From Chloroflexota bacterium (GTDB lineage: Bacteria; Chloroflexota; Anaerolineae; Aggregatilineales; Phototrophicaceae): a stretch of 55,083 nt of DNA. Position 1 is the stretch's first letter, and each line of letters starts with the position of its first letter. The position numbers were made by a program, and so were the translations under genes. The notes under the pieces were generated by a model that did not search any database, was not told where the DNA came from, and saw only the letters and a program-made list of their open reading frames with translations. This document shows, piece by piece, positions 755 to 38,474 of this stretch. The DNA is taken from contig JACRPS010000024.1 in assembly GCA_016223085.1 (NCBI GenBank), forward strand, positions 1-55,083. Direction: 5' to 3'.

Positions 755-3433
755 CTATGGGTTATTGTATTCAGTATTAGACGGATGAGCTTGTGTGCCG
801 GCCATCTGCTTATCAATCCGCTCGACCTGGTGCGCCGCTTTCAGCGATTCAAAGATGGCGCGTCCATCCTTAAAGTGCTGAAGTGCCGTATCGCGCTGGC
901 CCATCGCCTGATAATCCAGCGCCAGGTCAATCAGGCTGTAGCCCTCGCCGCGTTTGTCGTCCATCTTCCGCGCGATTTCCAGTGCCTCGTGGTGCTGCTC
1001 TAATGCCGCTTCTAACTGCCCCTGGTCACGCAGCGTGTCGCCCAATCGCCCCAGGTTGATCGCCTCGCCGCGTTTGTCGCCCGTGTCGCGGGCAATGGCT
1101 AACGCCTGTTCCAGATAATCCACCGCCGCCACGAATTCCCCTTGTTCGCGCAAGGTATCACCAAGCCGCCCCAGGTTGATCGCTTCGCCACGCCGGTCGC
1201 CGGTTTCCCGCGCCAGTGCCAGTGCCTGCCGGTAATGCTGCACCGCTTCCTCTGACCGACGCAGATCGCGGTAAGCATCACCCAGGTTGCCCAGGTTGAT
1301 CGCCTCACCGCGTTTGTCCTGCCGCGCGCGGGCAAGGTCCAACGCCTGCCGCAGATAGCCTACCGCTGTTTCCACCTGCCCAAGCTGGCGGTAGGCGATA
1401 CCCAGATTCGACAGGTTCATTTCGCGGGCATGGGCGTTGTCGGCCTGCTGCGACAGTGTTAACCCCTGCTGCAACTGCTCGATGGCCTGCTCCGTCTGTC
1501 CCAGCAGCCGGTGAGCGATGCCCAGCCGTCCCAGCGTCAGCCCTTCACCGGCGGTGTCGCCCAGGTCGTGATAGAGCTTTAACGCCTGCCGGTAATGTTT
1601 GATAGCGGTTTTGACCTGTCCCACGTCGCGGTAGGCGCTGCCCAGGCTGCTCAAATAGGCCGCCTGGCAGCGGTAGTCGCCGGCAGCCTGCGCGGCGGCG
1701 GCGGCCTGCGCCAGCAGCGTGATCGCCAGCCCAGCATAGCCCTGCAGGTGCAAAAAACCCTCATCGCCGTCCGGTGAACGATACAGCCAGTCCGCCAGAC
1801 TCATCACGTCGTCGTAGCGTCCGGCGCTCATCGCCCAACTGGCCGCGCCAAAAAAGTTGTCCAGCTCGGAGCGCAGCGCGGCGAAGTGTGCCGGGGTCGG
1901 GTTAGGATGGCGTTCCAGATAGGCGAAGCAGGCGTCCAGGGCGCGGCGGCGCTGGTCATCGGTGGCCTGCGCCTTGGCATAGCTGTAGGCCAGATCGTGG
2001 ATGCGATACTCGACGGCCCGTTCGGCGGTTTCGGCGCTGCGTTCCGCCAGCCCACGCCGCTGCAGGCGGTTGAGCGCATCTTCCACCACGTCGCGGTGGC
2101 GCTTCAGGTACAGCGCCAGCAGATCGGGCGTGATACTGGCGGTGAAAAACGCGCCAAACGCCAGGAACATCACCCGCGCTTCGCTGTCCAGCGTGTACAG
2201 GCTGGCGGAGAGCAGGTCTTCCACGCTGGCGCGGCCTTCATCCTCACTGCCATCTGGCGCGGCCAGCTTGTACGGCGCAGCCTCGATGCGCTTGAGCAGT
2301 TCGCCCGGTGTCAGGTCATCGAGCGCCAAAGTCAGCCCGGCCAGCCGCACCGCGAAGGCGTGGTCGCCCAGCTTGGCGCACAACGCGTCGGCCTGCGAGT
2401 TGTTGGATAAGGATGGTTCGCCCAACTGACTGAGCAGTTCCAGCGCCGCTGCCCGCGTCAGGCGGCCTACGTCAATCCGTGTCAGGCCGGTGTACCGCTG
2501 CCGCGATGTGACCAGCACCGGCGTGCCGCCCGGAATAGCGTTAATATTCAGCAGTTGCGTGATGGCGCGCCCGTTCCAGACGTCGTCCAGCACCACCAGC
2601 CGGACGTTATTCTGCGTCAGCAGCAGCCGCACCACCCGCGCCCGCGCCTGGACGCTGGCCTCCTTGGCAATGGTCTGTTCGGCGTTAAACGGCCTCGCCA
2701 GCGCCAGCAGCAGGCCGTCGCGGTCTTCCGTCCCGGCGCGCAGCCACAGCGCCGCGCCCTTTCCCGCCGCGATGCGCCGCGCCACCACCGTTGCCGCCAG
2801 CGCGGTTTTGCCGGTCCCGCCGAAGCCCTGGAGCAGCACGCGCCTGCCTTTGTCCAGCAGCGCATCTACCTCATTCAGCACGTCGTCACGTCCGACCAGT
2901 TTTTCCGGCTGGTTCGGCACGTCGTCGGGCGTGGTCGCCAGCACCGCGTCCAGTTCGCCGGAACGCGCCGCGCGCCACTCCTGCCATTCGACCAGCGCCT
3001 GGATCAGCTTCTGCTGGAAATCCTCGACTGTCGTAAACAGCGACCGGATGACCGTCTGCTCGATCTTGCTCTTAAACGCCGCCAGCCGCGCCACCTGTTC
3101 CGGTTCGTAGGCGTCGTCCGGCCAGTGATGCGCCGGGTCTACCAGAAAGCACAGCCGGTCTAATCCGCGTTCGCCGGCGTAGTCGAACTCGATCTCCGTC
3201 ACGCTGCGATCATGACCGGCTTCAACGTAACCGTAGCGGTGCGCGATGATGCCGACGTACAGATCGGCCTCGCGCAGCTTGCGTTTGCTGCCTTCGGTTG
3301 CGCCCACGCCCATCGCCTCGAAATTTTCCATCGCAATCGGCGTGAAGCCGAGGTTACGGCAGGTTTCGATGGCGGCCTCGCGGTAGGCTTTCAGATCGCG
3401 GCTGGTGCTGCTGATAAAGACGCTTTTGGTCAT
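755..3433 (-). CDS. DUF4062 / NB-ARC / TPR STAND ATPase
   Basis: An 892-residue, three-part protein. Residues 4-100 carry a DUF4062 domain (VFISSTSRDL, then EADLYVGI..HRYGY). Residues 175-440 are an NB-ARC ATPase with P-loop GFGGTGKT at 203-210, Walker B LVVLDDVW at 279-286 and a sensor-like LVTSRQR. From about 590 to the end are some seven TPR units with near-identical DKRGEAINLG cores. This architecture is that of signal-transducing STAND proteins: TPRs sense a ligand, the ATPase oligomerises, and the N-terminal domain acts as effector. Many relatives serve in phage defence; that role here is inferred. Followed closely by a DUF2971 gene. Confidence 0.85.
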   Translation of the reverse strand: MTKSVFISSTSRDLKAYREAAIETCRNLGFTPIAMENFEAMGVGATEGSKRKLREADLYVGIIAHRYGYVEAGHDRSVTEIEFDYAGERGLDRLCFLVDPAHHWPDDAYEPEQVARLAAFKSKIEQTVIRSLFTTVEDFQQKLIQALVEWQEWRAARSGELDAVLATTPDDVPNQPEKLVGRDDVLNEVDALLDKGRRVLLQGFGGTGKTALAATVVARRIAAGKGAALWLRAGTEDRDGLLLALARPFNAEQTIAKEASVQARARVVRLLLTQNNVRLVVLDDVWNGRAITQLLNINAIPGGTPVLVTSRQRYTGLTRIDVGRLTRAAALELLSQLGEPSLSNNSQADALCAKLGDHAFAVRLAGLTLALDDLTPGELLKRIEAAPYKLAAPDGSEDEGRASVEDLLSASLYTLDSEARVMFLAFGAFFTASITPDLLALYLKRHRDVVEDALNRLQRRGLAERSAETAERAVEYRIHDLAYSYAKAQATDDQRRRALDACFAYLERHPNPTPAHFAALRSELDNFFGAASWAMSAGRYDDVMSLADWLYRSPDGDEGFLHLQGYAGLAITLLAQAAAAAQAAGDYRCQAAYLSSLGSAYRDVGQVKTAIKHYRQALKLYHDLGDTAGEGLTLGRLGIAHRLLGQTEQAIEQLQQGLTLSQQADNAHAREMNLSNLGIAYRQLGQVETAVGYLRQALDLARARQDKRGEAINLGNLGDAYRDLRRSEEAVQHYRQALALARETGDRRGEAINLGRLGDTLREQGEFVAAVDYLEQALAIARDTGDKRGEAINLGRLGDTLRDQGQLEAALEQHHEALEIARKMDDKRGEGYSLIDLALDYQAMGQRDTALQHFKDGRAIFESLKAAHQVERIDKQMAGTQAHPSNTEYNNP

Positions 3434-3568: not shown

Positions 3569-5308
3569 TCATGGCGACAGCGCCGGGATGATGAACCGGA
3601 ACAGCAGATACACATCCAGCGGCGCGAACAGCAGGAACGGCAAAATGGTCAGAGACGCGGTGTAGGGGCGAACCGACGGTTCGCCCCTACGGTTTCTCGA
3701 AAAAACGAACCCCCGCACCGCATCCACACCCAGCGCCAGCGCCAGCGCGAACGGAATTAACCCCGGATACAAATAGCGCCCCTGGAACTGCACAAACACG
3801 GTGTTGTAATACAGGTAGGCCAGGACGGCGAGCAGGGCGGTGAACGCCAGAATCAGGTAGGCAGACGTTTGACCCCCACCCAACCTCCCCCGCCGGCGGG
3901 GGAGGCTTTTTTCGCCCCCTCCCTGTTGACGGGGAAGGGGGTGGGGGGTGGGGTCAACACGGCGAATCTGTAAAACCCACCCCGCCGCTGCCAGCGCCAG
4001 CAGCGCCAGCACGAAGATGTACGCCCAGGTCGGCATCGGCGCGGCCATCCAGCCGAACTGCCCCCAGAAGCTGTTGAACGTGGTTTGCACGGCGCGGGAC
4101 AGGTATTCGCCGGCGCCAATCTGCGCGATCAGGTCGGCGGTGCGGAGCTGGCCGGCCACCACCGCGTCGTGCGCGCGCAGCCCGAACACATCCGGGAAGT
4201 CGTAGACGCTGATATTCCGCAGCGCCCACAGACCCGCCAGCACGATCACCGGCAGCGCGAACCCGGCCAAATCGCGCAGCAGCGGCGCGAACGGCTGTAA
4301 GCGGCGTTTGAGCAAATTCGGTACGGCTCGTTTGACGATAGACGCGCCGACTCTACCCAAAGCCGTATCGCGGTAGCGCCACAGCGTCACCGCCGCCTGC
4401 CGCGTGACCTGCGGGGGTAGGGACACGATATATCGTGCCCCTACGCGCCCCATGCGCCATTTCAGGAAAATCGCCAGCGGCACAACGCCGATCAACAGCA
4501 GCGTGCTGACCTTCGTCACCAGCCCCAGGCCAACCAGCAGTCCGAGCATCCAGGGCTGCACCGCCATTCGGCGTCGGTTGGGGAACTTCAGCCAGACGTA
4601 GCCGTAGCGCACGGCTACGGCCAGCATTCCCACCGCCGCCACCATCGCCAGCAGGTTCATTGATGTTGTGCTGGCGCGCGCCGGGTCGAACAGTAGATCG
4701 CCGAGGATGGCGACCGCCGCCAGAATCGCCAGCATCAGCGCGGCGGCGAGGATGGGATATAACACAAGCGAGCGCCGGTCCTGCAGATAGTAGATAGTCG
4801 CCAGCAGCGTCAGGCCAATGATGAATTCCGCCAGTCCGTCGTTGTTCACCGACGCCAGCATATGCACGTGCTGCGGCAAAAACGCCACCAGCGCGGCCAT
4901 CGCCAGCGCGACCTGCGGGCGCTCCGGCAGCAGCGCGCGCCCAATGCCGTAAGCGCACAGCACCACGCCCGCGCCGATCAGCACCGAAAACAGCCGCATC
5001 TGCACCAGTTTGTCCTGCGCAGGGAATGGCGTCCAGACACGTGCCAGCAGGTAATACAGCGGCGGCTGGTGATCTTCGTACTGAATCGTGTCCAGCCGTC
5101 CCAGCAGGTCAGGCTTAAACCGCGCTGCTTTGAGTTCGTCCTGGTAGGCGTTCTGCCAGTCGCCCGGCTCAATCACCGGGCAGCAGCCGCCCTTCTGCGC
5201 GATATGCCGCACATTGTTGTAGTGTGCCGGTTCGTCCGGCGACTGCCAGGCGGGCGTCAGCGCTGCAAACAGCCCGGCGACGATGACGTACCCGATCACG
5301 ATCAGCAT
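3569..5308 (-). CDS. GT39-like polytopic membrane glycosyltransferase
   Basis: About 579 residues from the ATG at 5308. The open frame continues upstream to 5389, but that part is only translated 7-bp repeats. The N-terminal PDEPAHYNN acidic motif in the first extracytoplasmic loop and YEDHQPPLYYLLA resemble PMT/GT39-type glycosyltransferases and DUF2142 proteins, which use polyprenyl-phosphate sugars in the membrane. About ten to twelve hydrophobic segments follow. Three repetitive DNA elements sit inside the reading frame without breaking it, at 3662-3690, 3871-3955 and 4417-4444. Their translations (RGEPSVRPY, a Pro/Gly/Arg-rich stretch, VGARYIVSL) fall between hydrophobic segments, presumably in loops. 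Substrate unknown. Confidence 0.75.
   Translation of the reverse strand: MLIVIGYVIVAGLFAALTPAWQSPDEPAHYNNVRHIAQKGGCCPVIEPGDWQNAYQDELKAARFKPDLLGRLDTIQYEDHQPPLYYLLARVWTPFPAQDKLVQMRLFSVLIGAGVVLCAYGIGRALLPERPQVALAMAALVAFLPQHVHMLASVNNDGLAEFIIGLTLLATIYYLQDRRSLVLYPILAAALMLAILAAVAILGDLLFDPARASTTSMNLLAMVAAVGMLAVAVRYGYVWLKFPNRRRMAVQPWMLGLLVGLGLVTKVSTLLLIGVVPLAIFLKWRMGRVGARYIVSLPPQVTRQAAVTLWRYRDTALGRVGASIVKRAVPNLLKRRLQPFAPLLRDLAGFALPVIVLAGLWALRNISVYDFPDVFGLRAHDAVVAGQLRTADLIAQIGAGEYLSRAVQTTFNSFWGQFGWMAAPMPTWAYIFVLALLALAAAGWVLQIRRVDPTPHPLPRQQGGGEKSLPRRRGRLGGGQTSAYLILAFTALLAVLAYLYYNTVFVQFQGRYLYPGLIPFALALALGVDAVRGFVFSRNRRGEPSVRPYTASLTILPFLLFAPLDVYLLFRFIIPALSP
3662..3690. repeat. family A palindrome inside a CDS
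   Basis: 29-bp palindrome with arms GTAGGGGCGAACC and GGTTCGCCCCTAC. It is read through in frame by the GT39-like gene and encodes RGEPSVRPY near the C-terminus. Confidence 0.9.
3871..3955. repeat. family C C/G-rich repeat inside a CDS
   Basis: 85-bp element bounded by GACCCCCACCC and GGGTGGGGTC. It contains the hairpin CCTCCCCCGCCGGCGGGGG and a CCCTCCCTGTTGAC segment. The GT39-like gene reads through it, giving a Pro/Arg/Gly-rich insert between two hydrophobic segments. A related copy lies at 38367-38458. Confidence 0.85.
4417..4444. repeat. family A palindrome inside a CDS
   Basis: 28-bp palindrome GTAGGGACACGATA / TATCGTGCCCCTAC. It is read through in frame by the GT39-like gene (VGARYIVSL). 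Confidence 0.9.
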
Positions 5309-5382
5309 CAAAACTGAAAACTGAAAACTGAAAACTGAAAACCTGGTTCCGAGTTCCGGGTTCCGAGTTCCGGGTTTTGGAG
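5309..5382. repeat. 7-bp tandem repeat tract
   Basis: About four copies of GAAAACT followed by about four copies of GTTCCG(A/G). The tract abuts the ATG of the GT39-like gene and extends its open frame upstream, so the ORF-maximal start is misleading. Confidence 0.85.
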
Positions 5383-5399
5383 AAGTCATTGGTTGTTAG

Positions 5400-34725: not shown

Positions 34726-37700
34726 ATGACCACATCCCAACCCACCCGCACCTACACCAACCGGCGTTATCTCGACGCGATTGCCGATCACGTCGTCATC
34801 TTCGACGGCGCGATGGGCACGAGCATCCAGAGCTATAACCTGAGCGCGCAGGACTTCGGCGGCGAACGGTACAACGGCTGCAATGATTATCTGGTTGTCA
34901 CGCGCCCGGACGTGATCGAGGCGATTCATGCCTCATTCCTGGCGGTGGGCAGCGAGGCGGTAGAAACAAACACCTTTCGCGGCAACCGCCTGACGCTGAG
35001 TGAATACGGCCTGGGCGACCGTGTGCTGGAAATCAACCGCGCGGCGGCAGCGTTGGCGCGGCGCGTGTGTGACCGCTTCGAGGGCGAAACCGGCATTCCG
35101 CGTTTTGTCGCCGGCAGCATTGGCCCGTCCGGTAAACTGCCCAGCGGCAGCGACCCCGACTTAAGCAACATCACTTTTGAAGAACTGGCGGACGTGTTTT
35201 ACGAGCAGGCGCAGGGGTTGGTCGAAGGCGGCGCGGACCTGCTGCTGGTTGAAACCAGCCAGGACATTCTGGAAGTGAAAGCGGCGGTGGTGGGCATCAA
35301 CCGGTATTTCTCCGATGCAGGCGTGCGGATTCCGCTCCAGGTGCAGGTGACGCTGGACACGACCGGGCGTATGTTGTTTGGTACGGACATGGCCTCCGCG
35401 CTGGCGACGCTGGAAAGCCTGCCGGTAGACGTGATCGGCCTCAACTGCTCCACCGGGCCGGAGTACATGCGCGCGCCGATTCAATATCTGGTCGAACACT
35501 CCACGCTGCCGATCAGCGTGTTACCTAACGCCGGGCTGCCGATCAACGTCGACGGCGAAGCGGTCTACCCGATGGAGCCGGAGCCGTTCAGCGACATGGT
35601 GGCGGAGTTCACGCGCTGGGGCGTGAACGTCGTCGGCGGCTGCTGCGGCACGCGCCCGGAACACCTCGACGCGCTGTACCGCCGGGTGCATGGGCATTCG
35701 TACAGCGAACATTTGGAAGCTCTCCGTAGGGGAGGGTCTCAGACCCTCCCCTACAACGGCGAAAGCGTTGAAAGGTCCCAACCCAAACCCCGCGTCCCCC
35801 AACATATCGCCGTCGCGTCCAGCGGCATGACGGCCACGCCGATGCGCCAGGACCCCGCGCCAACGCTGATCGGCGAGCGCGTCAACAGCCAGGGTAGCCG
35901 CAAGGTGAAACAATTGCTGCTGGAGGACGATTACGACAGCATTGTACAGATCGCCGTTGACCAGGTGAATAACGGCGCGCACATGCTGGACGTGTGCGTG
36001 GCGCTGACCGAACGCGCCGACGAAAAAGCGCAGATGCAGGCCGTCGTCAAAAAGCTGTCGCAGGCCGTCAGCGTGCCGCTGATTTTTGACACCACCGAAG
36101 CCGACGTGGCCGAAGCCGCCTTAGCCCTGTATCCGGGGCGGGGCATCATCAACGGCAACAATCTGGAAAACGGGCGCGAACGGATTGACCGGATTCTGCC
36201 GATTGTCAAAAAATACGGTGCGGCGGTCATCTCGATGACGATTGACGAGGAAGGCATGGCGCACACGGCACAGCGCAAGTTCGCCATCGCCAAGCGCATC
36301 CACGACATCGCCGTGAACGAACACGGCCTGAAGCCCGAAGACCTGATTTTTGACACGCTGGTGTTCACGCTGACGACCGGTCAGGAAGAACTGCGGAACA
36401 GCGCCATCGAAACGATTGAAGCGATTCGGCTTATCAAGCAGAAGCTGCCCGGCGTGCTGACCTCGCTGGGAGTCAGCAATGTCAGCTTTGGTGTCAAACC
36501 TGCCGCGCGCGGTGTTTTGAACAGCGTGTTCCTGTACCATGCGGTGCAGGCCGGGCTGGACATGGCAATCGTCAACCCGGCGCACATCACCCCTTACGCC
36601 GAAATCCCCGCCGATCAGCGTAAGCTGGCCGATGATCTGATCTTCAACACCGACCCCGACGCACTGCCGCGTTTCATCCAGTATTTTGAGCAGAATGCCA
36701 TTGCCGCCGGCGGGCGTGAAGTCGAAGACCCCACCGCCGACATGACCAGCGAACAGGCGCTGCACTGGCAGATCGTCCATCGTAAAAAAGAGGGCGTCGA
36801 GGCGCTGATTGACGACTGCCTGACGCGGCAGGACGCGGTCGGCGTGCTGAACAACGTGCTGCTGCCGGCCATGAAAGAAGTGGGCGACAAGTTCGGCGCT
36901 GGCGAACTGATTCTGCCGTTTGTGTTACAAAGCGCCGAGGTGATGAAAAAGTCCGTCGCCTATCTGGAAATGTTTATGGATAAGGTCGAAGGCAGCAGTA
37001 AGGGCGTGGTCGTGCTGGCGACGGTCTACGGCGATGTGCACGACATCGGCAAGAACCTCGTCAAGACGATTTTGAGCAACAACGGCTACACCGTCCATGA
37101 CCTGGGCAAGCAGGTTCCCGCCAACGTCATCATCGAGAAAGCGCAGGAGTACCACGCCGACGCGATTGGCCTGAGCGCGCTGCTGGTTAGCACGTCGAAG
37201 CAGATGCCGCTGATCGTCAACGAACTGGCGCGGCGCGGCCTGTCGTACCCGGTATTGATCGGCGGCGCGGCCATCAACCGCAAATTCGGGCGGCGCATCC
37301 TGTTCCTTGAGGAAACGAACCAGCCCTACGAGTCGGGCGTATTCTACTGTAAGGACGCCTTTGAAGGACTGTCGGTGATGGACAAACTGGCCGACCCGCA
37401 GGAGCGCGGCGATTTTGTCGGCCAGATCATCGCGGAAGCGCACGAGGAGATGGGCAAGCCCGCGCCGGTTAAACGCGCTGCTATAACTGGGACGTGCACC
37501 GTTCGCCCCGCGCCGCACATCCCAACGCCGCCGTTCTGGGGGCCAAAAACGATTCGTGAGATGCCGCTGGAAATCGTGTTTAAATACCTGCACAAGCCGG
37601 AACTGTTCCGCCTGTCGTGGGGCGCGAAGAATGCACACGGCGCGGAATGGGAGCAGTTGGAAGCCGAGTTCGAGGCGCGGCTGGCGCAGATGCAAAAGGA

Positions 37701-38367
37701 CGCCATTCGTGACCAGACTCTGCGCCCGCAGGCCGTGTACGGCTATTTCCCCTGCAACAGCCAGGGCGATGATTTGATCGTGTGGGACTGGCAGGCATTT
37801 AATGAGAACGGCGTAGGGGCACGGCACGTTGTGCCCCTACAAAACGGCCATTATCAATTAACCGAAATCGCCCGTTTCACCTTCCCGCGCCAGCCGTTCG
37901 GCGAATTCCTGTGTCTGAGCGACTACTTCGCGCCGATGGACAGCGGCCAGGTGGATACCGTCGCGCTGCAAGTGGTAACGGTCGGCGCGGGCGCAACCGA
38001 AGCGTTTGACAAACTGCAAGCGGCCAACCAGTACAGCGAAGCCTATTTCTTTCACGGGCTGGCGGTGCAGACCGCCGAGGCGACGGCCAACTTCGTCAAC
38101 CGGCAGGTGGTGAACAAGGAATTGAGCATCCCGCCGGGACAGGGCAAACGCTATAGCTGGGGTTATCCGGCCTGCCCCGATCTGCGCGACCACGAAACGC
38201 TGTTCCGGCTGCTGCCCGGCGCGGTGACGGATTTGGGCCTGAGCCTGACCGTCGCGTATCAACTCGTGCCGGAGCAGAGCACGGCGGCTATCGTCGTTCA
38301 CCACCCCGACGCCAAGTATTACAGCGTCGGCAGCCTGGACCGAACCGCGCAGATTTTGGGCGAGTAG
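34726..38367 (+). CDS. metH: cobalamin-dependent methionine synthase
   Basis: 1213 residues, close to the 1227 of E. coli MetH. Homocysteine domain (about 1-325) with zinc cysteines C241, C306 and C307 (GLNCSTG, GGCCGTRPEHL). Pterin domain (about 370-630; GERVNSQGSRKVKQLL). Cobalamin module (about 660-890) with D770-x-H772-xx-G775 in DVHDIGKNL. AdoMet reactivation domain (about 930-1190; YGYFPCNSQGDD, YSWGYPACPDL). It methylates homocysteine with methyl-THF. Two family A palindromes lie in frame: residues 334-344, in the linker between the first two domains, and residues 1030-1039 in the activation domain. GGAG is twelve bases before the ATG, a long spacing. Confidence 0.97.
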   Translation: MTTSQPTRTYTNRRYLDAIADHVVIFDGAMGTSIQSYNLSAQDFGGERYNGCNDYLVVTRPDVIEAIHASFLAVGSEAVETNTFRGNRLTLSEYGLGDRVLEINRAAAALARRVCDRFEGETGIPRFVAGSIGPSGKLPSGSDPDLSNITFEELADVFYEQAQGLVEGGADLLLVETSQDILEVKAAVVGINRYFSDAGVRIPLQVQVTLDTTGRMLFGTDMASALATLESLPVDVIGLNCSTGPEYMRAPIQYLVEHSTLPISVLPNAGLPINVDGEAVYPMEPEPFSDMVAEFTRWGVNVVGGCCGTRPEHLDALYRRVHGHSYSEHLEALRRGGSQTLPYNGESVERSQPKPRVPQHIAVASSGMTATPMRQDPAPTLIGERVNSQGSRKVKQLLLEDDYDSIVQIAVDQVNNGAHMLDVCVALTERADEKAQMQAVVKKLSQAVSVPLIFDTTEADVAEAALALYPGRGIINGNNLENGRERIDRILPIVKKYGAAVISMTIDEEGMAHTAQRKFAIAKRIHDIAVNEHGLKPEDLIFDTLVFTLTTGQEELRNSAIETIEAIRLIKQKLPGVLTSLGVSNVSFGVKPAARGVLNSVFLYHAVQAGLDMAIVNPAHITPYAEIPADQRKLADDLIFNTDPDALPRFIQYFEQNAIAAGGREVEDPTADMTSEQALHWQIVHRKKEGVEALIDDCLTRQDAVGVLNNVLLPAMKEVGDKFGAGELILPFVLQSAEVMKKSVAYLEMFMDKVEGSSKGVVVLATVYGDVHDIGKNLVKTILSNNGYTVHDLGKQVPANVIIEKAQEYHADAIGLSALLVSTSKQMPLIVNELARRGLSYPVLIGGAAINRKFGRRILFLEETNQPYESGVFYCKDAFEGLSVMDKLADPQERGDFVGQIIAEAHEEMGKPAPVKRAAITGTCTVRPAPHIPTPPFWGPKTIREMPLEIVFKYLHKPELFRLSWGAKNAHGAEWEQLEAEFEARLAQMQKDAIRDQTLRPQAVYGYFPCNSQGDDLIVWDWQAFNENGVGARHVVPLQNGHYQLTEIARFTFPRQPFGEFLCLSDYFAPMDSGQVDTVALQVVTVGAGATEAFDKLQAANQYSEAYFFHGLAVQTAEATANFVNRQVVNKELSIPPGQGKRYSWGYPACPDLRDHETLFRLLPGAVTDLGLSLTVAYQLVPEQSTAAIVVHHPDAKYYSVGSLDRTAQILGE
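35726..35754. repeat. family A palindrome inside metH
   Basis: 29-bp palindrome GTAGGGGAGGGTC / GACCCTCCCCTAC, read in frame as RRGGSQTLPY between the homocysteine and pterin domains. Confidence 0.92.
37813..37840. repeat. family A palindrome inside metH
   Basis: 28-bp palindrome GTAGGGGCACGGC / GTTGTGCCCCTAC, read in frame as VGARHVVPL in the activation domain between FNENG and the TEIARFTFPRQ strand. Confidence 0.92.
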
Positions 38368-38458
38368 ACCCCACCCCCATCCCCTCCCCGTAAACAGGGA
38401 GGGGAGAAACCCTGTATCAGACTCCTCCCCCGTTGACGGGGGAGGCCGGGAGGGGGTC
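38367..38458. repeat. family C C/G-rich repeat
   Basis: 92-bp element bounded by GACCCCACCCCC and GGGAGGGGGTC with inner hairpins CCCTCCCCG/CAGGGAGGGG and CTCCCCCGTTGACGGGGGAG. It starts at the last base of the metH stop and may end that transcript. Confidence 0.85.
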
Positions 38459-38474
38459 AAAAGGAAAAAACATA

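What the first reader, a model, noticed from the sequence alone, without database searches (positions are those of the whole stretch)
3662..4444. Three repeat elements inserted in frame within one membrane glycosyltransferase gene
Seen: two family A palindromes and one family C element lie inside the GT39-like coding frame, and the frame stays open through each, encoding short inserts between hydrophobic segments. Known: Rickettsia palindromic elements behave this way inside ORFs. Inference: this genome's palindromes are mobile and tolerated in protein loops, a protein-diversifying process not, to my knowledge, described for this lineage.
Basis: partly seen in the sequence, partly recalled or inferred. 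Interest (0 to 1): 0.78.

Follow-up and report, generated by a model that had tools for sequence, protein, structure and literature searches.

The report
Palindromic DNA repeats inside protein loops
Short palindromic DNA repeats sit in frame in protein loops of a Chloroflexota bacterium, even in housekeeping enzymes, and a related species often has a palindrome at the same spot with a different middle sequence, which changes the loop without breaking the gene.

Summary
Two 28-29-nt GTAG...CTAC palindromes and one ~92-nt GC-rich element lie in frame in a GT-C-type membrane protein (DUF2142), each in a predicted inter-helix loop. In-frame REP-like inserts are a known kind (Rickettsia RPEs; intragenic GTAG REPs, Di Nocera 2013). 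The palindromes are not confined to this genome: the G013 orthologue (72-75% identical) has palindromes at both sites; only the long element looks lineage-specific. In an 868-kb sample, 14 of 190 palindromes lie in frame in 10 genes, including MetRS, GlyRS, DnaG, MetH and PFK. The less expected result is that sites persist while stems change. Of 31 palindromes with an orthologous interval in G013, 10 have a palindrome there (controls 1/205 intergenic, 1/641 genic): 2 keep nearly the same core, 4 show two-arm compensatory changes, 4 carry another core. In 11 chosen aligned pairs, all 16 stem pairs changed on both sides stay Watson-Crick. I read these as REP-like elements tolerated in loops and rewritten in place from other family members or by arm-to-arm copying. 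The machinery is unknown: Y1/RAYT transposase genes do not track copy number over 61 genomes, although both full-size ones in this genome have palindromes nearby.

The parts
3569..5389 (-). Host gene: GT-C-type multi-pass membrane protein, DUF2142 family, 606 aa (alternative start at 5308)
3662..3690 (.). Palindrome A1 (29 nt), core GAACCG/CGGTTC, codon phase 1, encodes about aa 567-576; loop 563-574
   Evidence: orthologous G013 site has a 29-nt palindrome with another core at the same nucleotide position
3867..3958 (.). Family C element (about 92 nt, folds to a long hairpin, -61.1 kcal/mol), encodes about aa 478-508; loop 478-504
   Evidence: absent at this place in G013, G005, G006, G007; similar sequence elsewhere in G013 and G007
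4417..4444 (.). Palindrome A2 (28 nt), core CACGATATATCGTG, codon phase 0, encodes about aa 316-325; loop 319-325
   Evidence: G013 has an imperfect 28-nt palindrome with another core at the same place
5310..5378 (.). Seven-base tandem repeats (AAAACTG; TTCCGAG/TTCCGGG) that would encode the N-terminus if translation starts at 5389; G013 has a similar N-terminal stretch
   Evidence: (D10)
34726..38364 (+). MetH (B12-dependent methionine synthase), 1213 aa, second host gene in the window
35726..35754 (.). 29-nt palindrome in frame in MetH, aa 334-343, between the S-methyl_trans and Pterin_bind domains
37813..37840 (.). 28-nt palindrome in frame in MetH, aa 1030-1039, inside the activation domain

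Best explanation
The elements are small, non-coding, REP-like palindromes (GTAG...CTAC, 28-30 nt) of a multi-copy family in an Aggregatilineales genome, plus a longer GC-rich hairpin element. They are mostly intergenic; a few per cent sit in protein genes where the reading phase is open and the peptide falls in a linker, terminus or surface loop, so the host protein tolerates it (shown by anatomy and comparison; tolerance is inferred, not measured). Once present, a site can outlast speciation, while the sequence of the stem is rewritten on both arms together: either by paired substitutions or by exchange for the core of another subfamily (shown by comparison). Most likely step, inferred: the palindrome extrudes as a hairpin, is nicked or broken, and is repaired by copying from another copy that shares the GTAGGG ends, or by template switching from one arm to the other. 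In genes, changes that keep length and frame survive, so the loop peptide is swapped like a cassette.
For: Copy number and control. In 868 kb: 149 intergenic, 30 at gene edges, 15 inside called genes, of which one 20-nt hit is not a GTAG element, leaving 14 in 10 genes. Phase: a first base at codon position 3 would put a stop in 165 of 190 elements; the 14 are 10 in phase 0 and 4 in phase 1. Hosts: AroB, a PMT_2 protein (3 elements), GlyRS, DnaG, a 739-aa protein without a Pfam hit, GT9/WecG fusion, PFK, MetRS, DUF2142 (2), MetH (2). Positions relative to Pfam domains: between domains in GlyRS, GT9/WecG and MetH-1; outside the matched domains in AroB, PFK and DnaG; inside a domain in MetRS and MetH-2. 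Shared sites: 8 of 26 in G013 against controls 1/205 intergenic and 1/641 genic; with more DNA 10 of 31 (3 of 12 genic, 7 of 19 intergenic). Flank alignments place several at the same nucleotide (sites 45, 48, 124, 183, 190, 191). Paired changes: in 11 aligned same-length pairs, 157 stem pairs, 16 changed on both sides, all 16 paired in both species, 5.2 expected, 0 of 10,000 shuffles reach 16. Local supply: the core class AGGGTCT.AGACCCT makes 11 of 28 palindromes in held G013 DNA against 8 of 190 in G000, and 3 of the 4 G013 sites with a different core (45, 152, 183) carry it. Length: 0 of 6 aligned genic pairs differ in length, 7 of 14 intergenic pairs do.
Against: Numbers are small, and 21 of 31 G000 sites show no detected palindrome in G013, so persistence is the minority outcome. 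In-frame status is partly built in: genes were called as open frames, so a frame-breaking element could not count as inside. The 11 pairs were chosen by hand, and a replaced palindrome is paired by nature, so that test does not separate exchange from fresh insertion. The GlyRS/G001 pair has a 6-nt upstream indel, and flanks at sites 151 and 186 are too diverged to prove the exact position. In the PMT_2 loop, G012 has two palindromes that do not align to the G000 one, which fits independent insertion into tolerant loops. The genic control in G001 was 2/107, above its intergenic control, with 1 of 6 observed. No enzyme is identified.
Confidence: 0.62

Rival explanations
1. Independent insertions: loops and 3' gene ends are simply the few tolerant places, so different family members land there repeatedly in different species; no rewriting of existing copies happens.
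For: MetH loops carry palindromes in some species, GC-rich C-like repeats in others and nothing in others. G012 has two palindromes in one PMT_2 loop, not aligned with the G000 element. G018 (L021) has a C-like insert near the A1 loop of DUF2142.
Against: Several G000/G013 pairs coincide to the nucleotide with different cores, in and outside genes (sites 45, 124, 183), with no target motif beyond a depletion of A next to the element (22 of 380 flank bases). Two-arm changes that are not another listed subfamily's core (GTC...GAC at A1; GTAC...GTAC at site 165) need paired change of an existing copy.
Confidence: 0.25
2. Selection for a hairpin (RNA or DNA function) at each site keeps arms complementary, so stems change by ordinary compensatory substitutions.
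For: 16 of 16 both-side changes remain Watson-Crick. Intergenic elements avoid divergent spacers: 14 in 25.9 kb against 39 in 14.4 kb of convergent spacer, as expected of transcribed elements.
Against: Whole cores match other subfamilies rather than drifting stepwise (sites 45, 152, 183). G005-G007 have decayed or no palindromes at many of the same sites, so no site-specific hairpin seems needed, least of all inside coding loops.
Confidence: 0.15
3. A Y1 (RAYT) transposase mobilises these palindromes in trans and causes both insertion and core change, as proposed for REPs.
For: GTAG ends; preference for unidirectional and convergent spacers. G000 has two full-size Y1 genes (103.5 and 103.3 bits), with palindromes 435 nt and 82 nt away. 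Different REP classes flank orthologous RAYT genes in pseudomonads, called orthoswitch (PMC3686654, abstract and passages).
Against: Across 61 genomes copy number does not follow Y1 genes: G036 (243 palindromes) and G013 (80) have only weak matches (45.1 and 38.2 bits) inside frames of about 900-1000 aa, and G047 (77) has 46 bits in a long frame and 42.9 bits in a 159-aa frame, while G055, G019 and G011 have 137-150-bit matches and no palindrome of this pattern. The assemblies are incomplete (G036 85%, G013 95%).
Confidence: 0.25
4. Assembly or gene-calling artefact.
For: MAG-type assemblies; the frame prediction comes from DNA only.
Against: Independent assemblies (G000, G013, G005, G007, G001) show open frames through palindromes at the same loops of conserved enzymes, and coding signal is positive on both sides of each of the 14 elements.
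Confidence: 0.02

Closest known systems
GTAG-tagged REPs, including intragenic ones (Di Nocera et al. 2013, PMC3733652)
   Same: Size, GTAG end, high copy number, mostly intergenic with avoidance of divergent spacers, some in frame inside genes including tRNA synthetases; reported from Chloroflexi; different REPs at about the same site of recB in two Xanthomonas species.
   Different: There the GTAG is described as unpaired at one end; here GTAG pairs with CTAC, so the element is fully symmetric. Stem exchange at aligned dispersed sites was not seen in the passages and sections I read.
Rickettsia palindromic elements (RPE)
   Same: Palindromic repeats in frame in genes for conserved proteins, tolerated in the protein.
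   Different: The GTAG rather than the CGTC end that PMC3733652 reports for R. conorii RPE sequences; RPEs are said to lose arm identity over time (PMC6649704 passage), whereas here some shared sites stay paired with changed stems.
REP orthoswitch (Nunvar et al. 2013, PMC3686654)
   Same: Different REP classes at orthologous places in related strains, mechanism unknown to its authors.
   Different: Described for REPs flanking RAYT genes; here seen at dispersed intergenic sites and inside coding loops.
REPINs (Bertels and Rainey 2011, PMC3116915)
   Same: Symmetric pairs of inverted REPs; compensatory changes in the hairpin noted as common (passage).
   Different: Compared there within one genome and extragenic; here each unit is a single 28-30-nt palindrome and the comparison is between orthologous sites.
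Coding palindromes of Nematomorpha mitochondria (PMC6649704)
   Same: Palindromes inside genes whose arms stay complementary; arm-to-arm copying or template switching proposed (passages).
   Different: Up to 284 bp, not a dispersed repeat family, both arms encode conserved residues.

Membership tests
REP, definition quoted in Nunvar 2013 (5' tetranucleotide GT(A/G)G plus downstream palindrome) | GTAG-type tetranucleotide at the 5' end followed by a variable palindrome | tested here: met
   GTAGGG ends with several cores; definition seen in a passage
GTAG REP super-family (Di Nocera 2013) | GTAG at one end, not involved in base pairing | tested here: not met
   GTAG pairs with CTAC at the other end in the perfect elements; definition
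GTAG REP super-family (Di Nocera 2013) | High copy number, mostly intergenic, between unidirectional or convergent genes | tested here: met
   149 of 194 intergenic, 15 inside, 30 edge; ++ 61, -- 52, convergent 39, divergent 14
GTAG REP super-family (Di Nocera 2013) | Association with RAYT (Y1) transposase genes | tested here: inconclusive
   Both full-size Y1 genes of G000 have a palindrome within 435 nt; copy number does not follow Y1 genes over 61 genomes
Rickettsia palindromic element | CGTC end | tested here: not met
   Ends are GTAG/CTAC; the CGTC end is from PMC3733652
Rickettsia palindromic element | In frame inside genes for functional proteins | tested here: met
   14 elements in 10 genes, including MetRS, GlyRS, DnaG, MetH; protein function not measured
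MITE | Target-site duplication | tested here: not met
   Flanking direct duplications of 2 nt or more at 8 of 190 elements
DUF2142 / GT-C glycosyltransferase (host gene) | Family profile and fold | tested here: met
   PF09913 43.3 bits over cut-off 30.1; GT-C enzymes head the Foldseek list at low TM-score
   PF02366 19.8 bits, cut-off 22.7

The most novel reading that the evidence does not exclude
In these Chloroflexota, palindrome sites in proteins are replaceable cassettes: a hairpin-directed copying process rewrites both arms of a resident palindrome in place, from the locally common subfamily, keeping length and frame, so that surface loops and inter-domain linkers of conserved enzymes are repeatedly re-coded without a new insertion.
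Probability: 0.35. Interest if true: 0.78.

Novelty: new variant of a known kind. Interest (0 to 1): 0.55.

Why it matters
In-frame palindromic repeats are best known from Rickettsia. Here they occur in a distant phylum, in housekeeping enzymes, with orthologous species close enough to see what happens next. If stems really are exchanged in place, the long-standing question of how REP-like repeats change their sequence class becomes testable with dispersed sites, and bacteria have a route for swapping loop peptides as blocks.

Tried and rejected
Confinement to this genome: rejected for A1 and A2 by the G013 orthologue. RAYT as the driver across genomes: not supported, but not excluded. MITE with target duplication: no duplication. 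A repeat search by 14-mers mostly found alanine/leucine codon runs (219 of 232 in the largest cluster inside genes), and confirmed the palindrome cluster. Family C is rare in the sample: 4 C-like loci, 1 in a gene, so nothing statistical was attempted. The short hit at C12:64431 was dropped as not a GTAG element; elements under 26 nt were left out of the phase, flank and class counts (190 of 194 kept). The palindrome finder used for the site test misses decayed copies, for example A2 in G013, so shared sites are undercounted. Paper searches for exchange of REPs at orthologous sites and for intragenic palindromes in Chloroflexi listed no paper that, from titles, abstract starts and the passages I opened, reports stem exchange at dispersed or coding sites; subscription papers and supplements were not searched.

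Full report
What is there. The window gene 3569-5389 (-) is an open frame of 606 codons, a multi-pass membrane protein of the DUF2142 family whose AlphaFold2 model (mean pLDDT 83.6, pTM 0.86) resembles GT-C enzymes weakly. It holds two palindromes, A1 3662-3690 and A2 4417-4444, and a 92-nt GC-rich element C, 3867-3958. Placed on the model (positions), the three fall in three loops between helices.

Who it belongs to. The closest genomes are labelled same genus by the genome search. G013 matches, by its 7,553-base contig, the record titled Aggregatilineales bacterium D137_maxbin.019, so the window is from Chloroflexota, class Anaerolineae, most likely Aggregatilineales.

The repeat family. GTAGGGGCN{4,24}GCCCCTAC occurs 337 times in this genome, 80 in G013, 243 in G036 and 0 to 77 in the other 58 genomes searched; the backwards control is 0 in G000, G013 and G036 and 0 to 2 elsewhere. 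A looser finder gave 194 in 868,435 nt against 17 in the reversed DNA, mostly 28 (100), 29 (63) or 30 nt (23). Outer arms are shared and cores fall into classes such as GAACCG/CGGTTC, CACGGCATGCCGTG, CACGATATATCGTG, GGGTTT/AAACCC and AGGGTCT/AGACCCT. There is no target duplication; intergenic copies avoid divergent spacers.

Inside genes. With a hexamer gene model (coding fraction 0.87), 149 palindromes are intergenic, 30 at gene edges and 15 inside, one of them a 20-nt false hit. The 14 lie in 10 genes: AroB, a PMT_2 protein (3), GlyRS, DnaG, a 739-aa protein with no Pfam match, a GT9/WecG fusion, PFK, MetRS, DUF2142 (2) and MetH (2). Being open is a condition of being counted, so phase statistics are only descriptive: 10 in phase 0, 4 in phase 1, none in phase 2, where 165 of 190 elements would bring a stop. 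GlyRS, GT9/WecG and MetH-1 inserts lie between Pfam domains; AroB, PFK and DnaG inserts outside the matched domains; MetRS and MetH-2 inserts inside a domain. Against Pyrococcus MetRS (1rqg) the MetRS insert falls where the solved protein is shorter.

Orthologous sites. In DUF2142, G013 (75% identity, 72% by BLASTP) has a 29-nt palindrome at A1 and an imperfect 28-nt one at A2, at the same positions but with other stems; G005, G006 and G007 have no GTAG palindrome there, and none of the four has C. In MetRS, G013 has a 28-nt palindrome at the same place with two compensatory changes. In the GlyRS alpha-beta linker, G000, G013 and G001 have palindromes and the others imperfect or no palindromes. 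In MetH, the two loops carry palindromes, C-like repeats or nothing, by species. The 739-aa protein and the GT9/WecG fusion have no palindrome in G013 at the site.

Counts. Of G000 palindromes whose two flanks align to one G013 contig, 8 of 26 have a palindrome in the interval (3 of 12 genic, 5 of 14 intergenic); random intergenic points 1 of 205, random genic points 1 of 641. With loci added, 10 of 31 (3 of 12, 7 of 19; controls not rerun). For G005, G006 and G007: 3 of 24, 3 of 20, 3 of 24, controls 0 of 139, 80, 88 intergenic and 0 of 651, 430, 618 genic. G001: 1 of 6 against a genic control of 2 of 107; G012 1 of 8 against 0 of 5 and 0 of 107; G004 0 of 7; G014 0 of 5. By my reading of the ten G013 pairs: 2 nearly the same core (sites 151, 166), 4 with two-arm change (42, 48, 124, 165), 4 with another core (45, 152, 183, 186).

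Paired change. I took by hand 11 same-length aligned pairs: 116 stem pairs unchanged, 25 changed on one side, 16 on both, all 16 Watson-Crick in both species; 5.2 expected, 0 of 10,000 shuffles reached 16. Left out: pairs of different length, a duplicate (site 186 in G007), and sites 165 and 166 found later; A2 was added although the finder missed it. A palindrome replaced by another palindrome is paired by nature, so this shows that arms change together, not how.

Supply and frame. The class AGGGTCT/AGACCCT is 11 of 28 palindromes in held G013 DNA and 8 of 190 in G000, and 3 of the 4 other-core G013 sites carry it. Length differs in 7 of 14 intergenic pairs and in 0 of 6 aligned genic pairs (1 of 7 if the unaligned PMT_2/G012 pair is counted), as a frame filter would give; numbers are small.

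Machinery. G000 has two full-size Y1 transposase genes, with palindromes 435 and 82 nt away, but palindrome-rich G036 and G013 have only weak Y1 matches in long frames, and several genomes with strong Y1 genes have none of these palindromes. The copying step is therefore inference.

Known and new. Intragenic in-frame REPs, also in Chloroflexi-type GTAG families, and REP class changes at RAYT loci are in print (PMC3733652, PMC3686654). What I did not find in the papers listed or opened is exchange of stems at dispersed shared sites, including coding loops. I rate it a new variant of a known kind.

Noticed in passing
window 5310-5378; L156 1745-1878; G000 C12 327146-327177, 403420-403477, 97230-97249: Seven-base tandem repeats (TTCCGAG, ACTGAGT types) also lie inside called genes: 6 of 13 runs in the sample; at the DUF2142 N-terminus G013 has a similar stretch.
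   Followed up: partly
L189 (G012), PMT_2 orthologue of G000 C12:182069-183553: Two different palindromes in frame in one loop of the same protein.
   Followed up: partly
L021 (G018), DUF2142 homologue: A C-like peptide insert (SPPHTWGGARGGVG) near the loop that holds A1 in the window gene.
   Followed up: no
G000 C8:173134-173466 and similar places in many relatives: Weak Y1_Tnp matches (about 30-46 bits) inside frames of about 500-1500 aa in many of the 61 genomes; not RAYT-sized.
   Followed up: no
L004 and L005 (G005, G007), A2 site of DUF2142: The loop without a GTAG palindrome shows its own inverted repeat (CCGCAGCCG...CGGCTGCGG); could be chance in GC-rich codons.
   Followed up: no
window 38364-38461: A second family C-like element directly after the MetH stop codon.
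   Followed up: no
window 755-3433: DUF4062 + NB-ARC + TPR protein next to the host gene.
   Followed up: no
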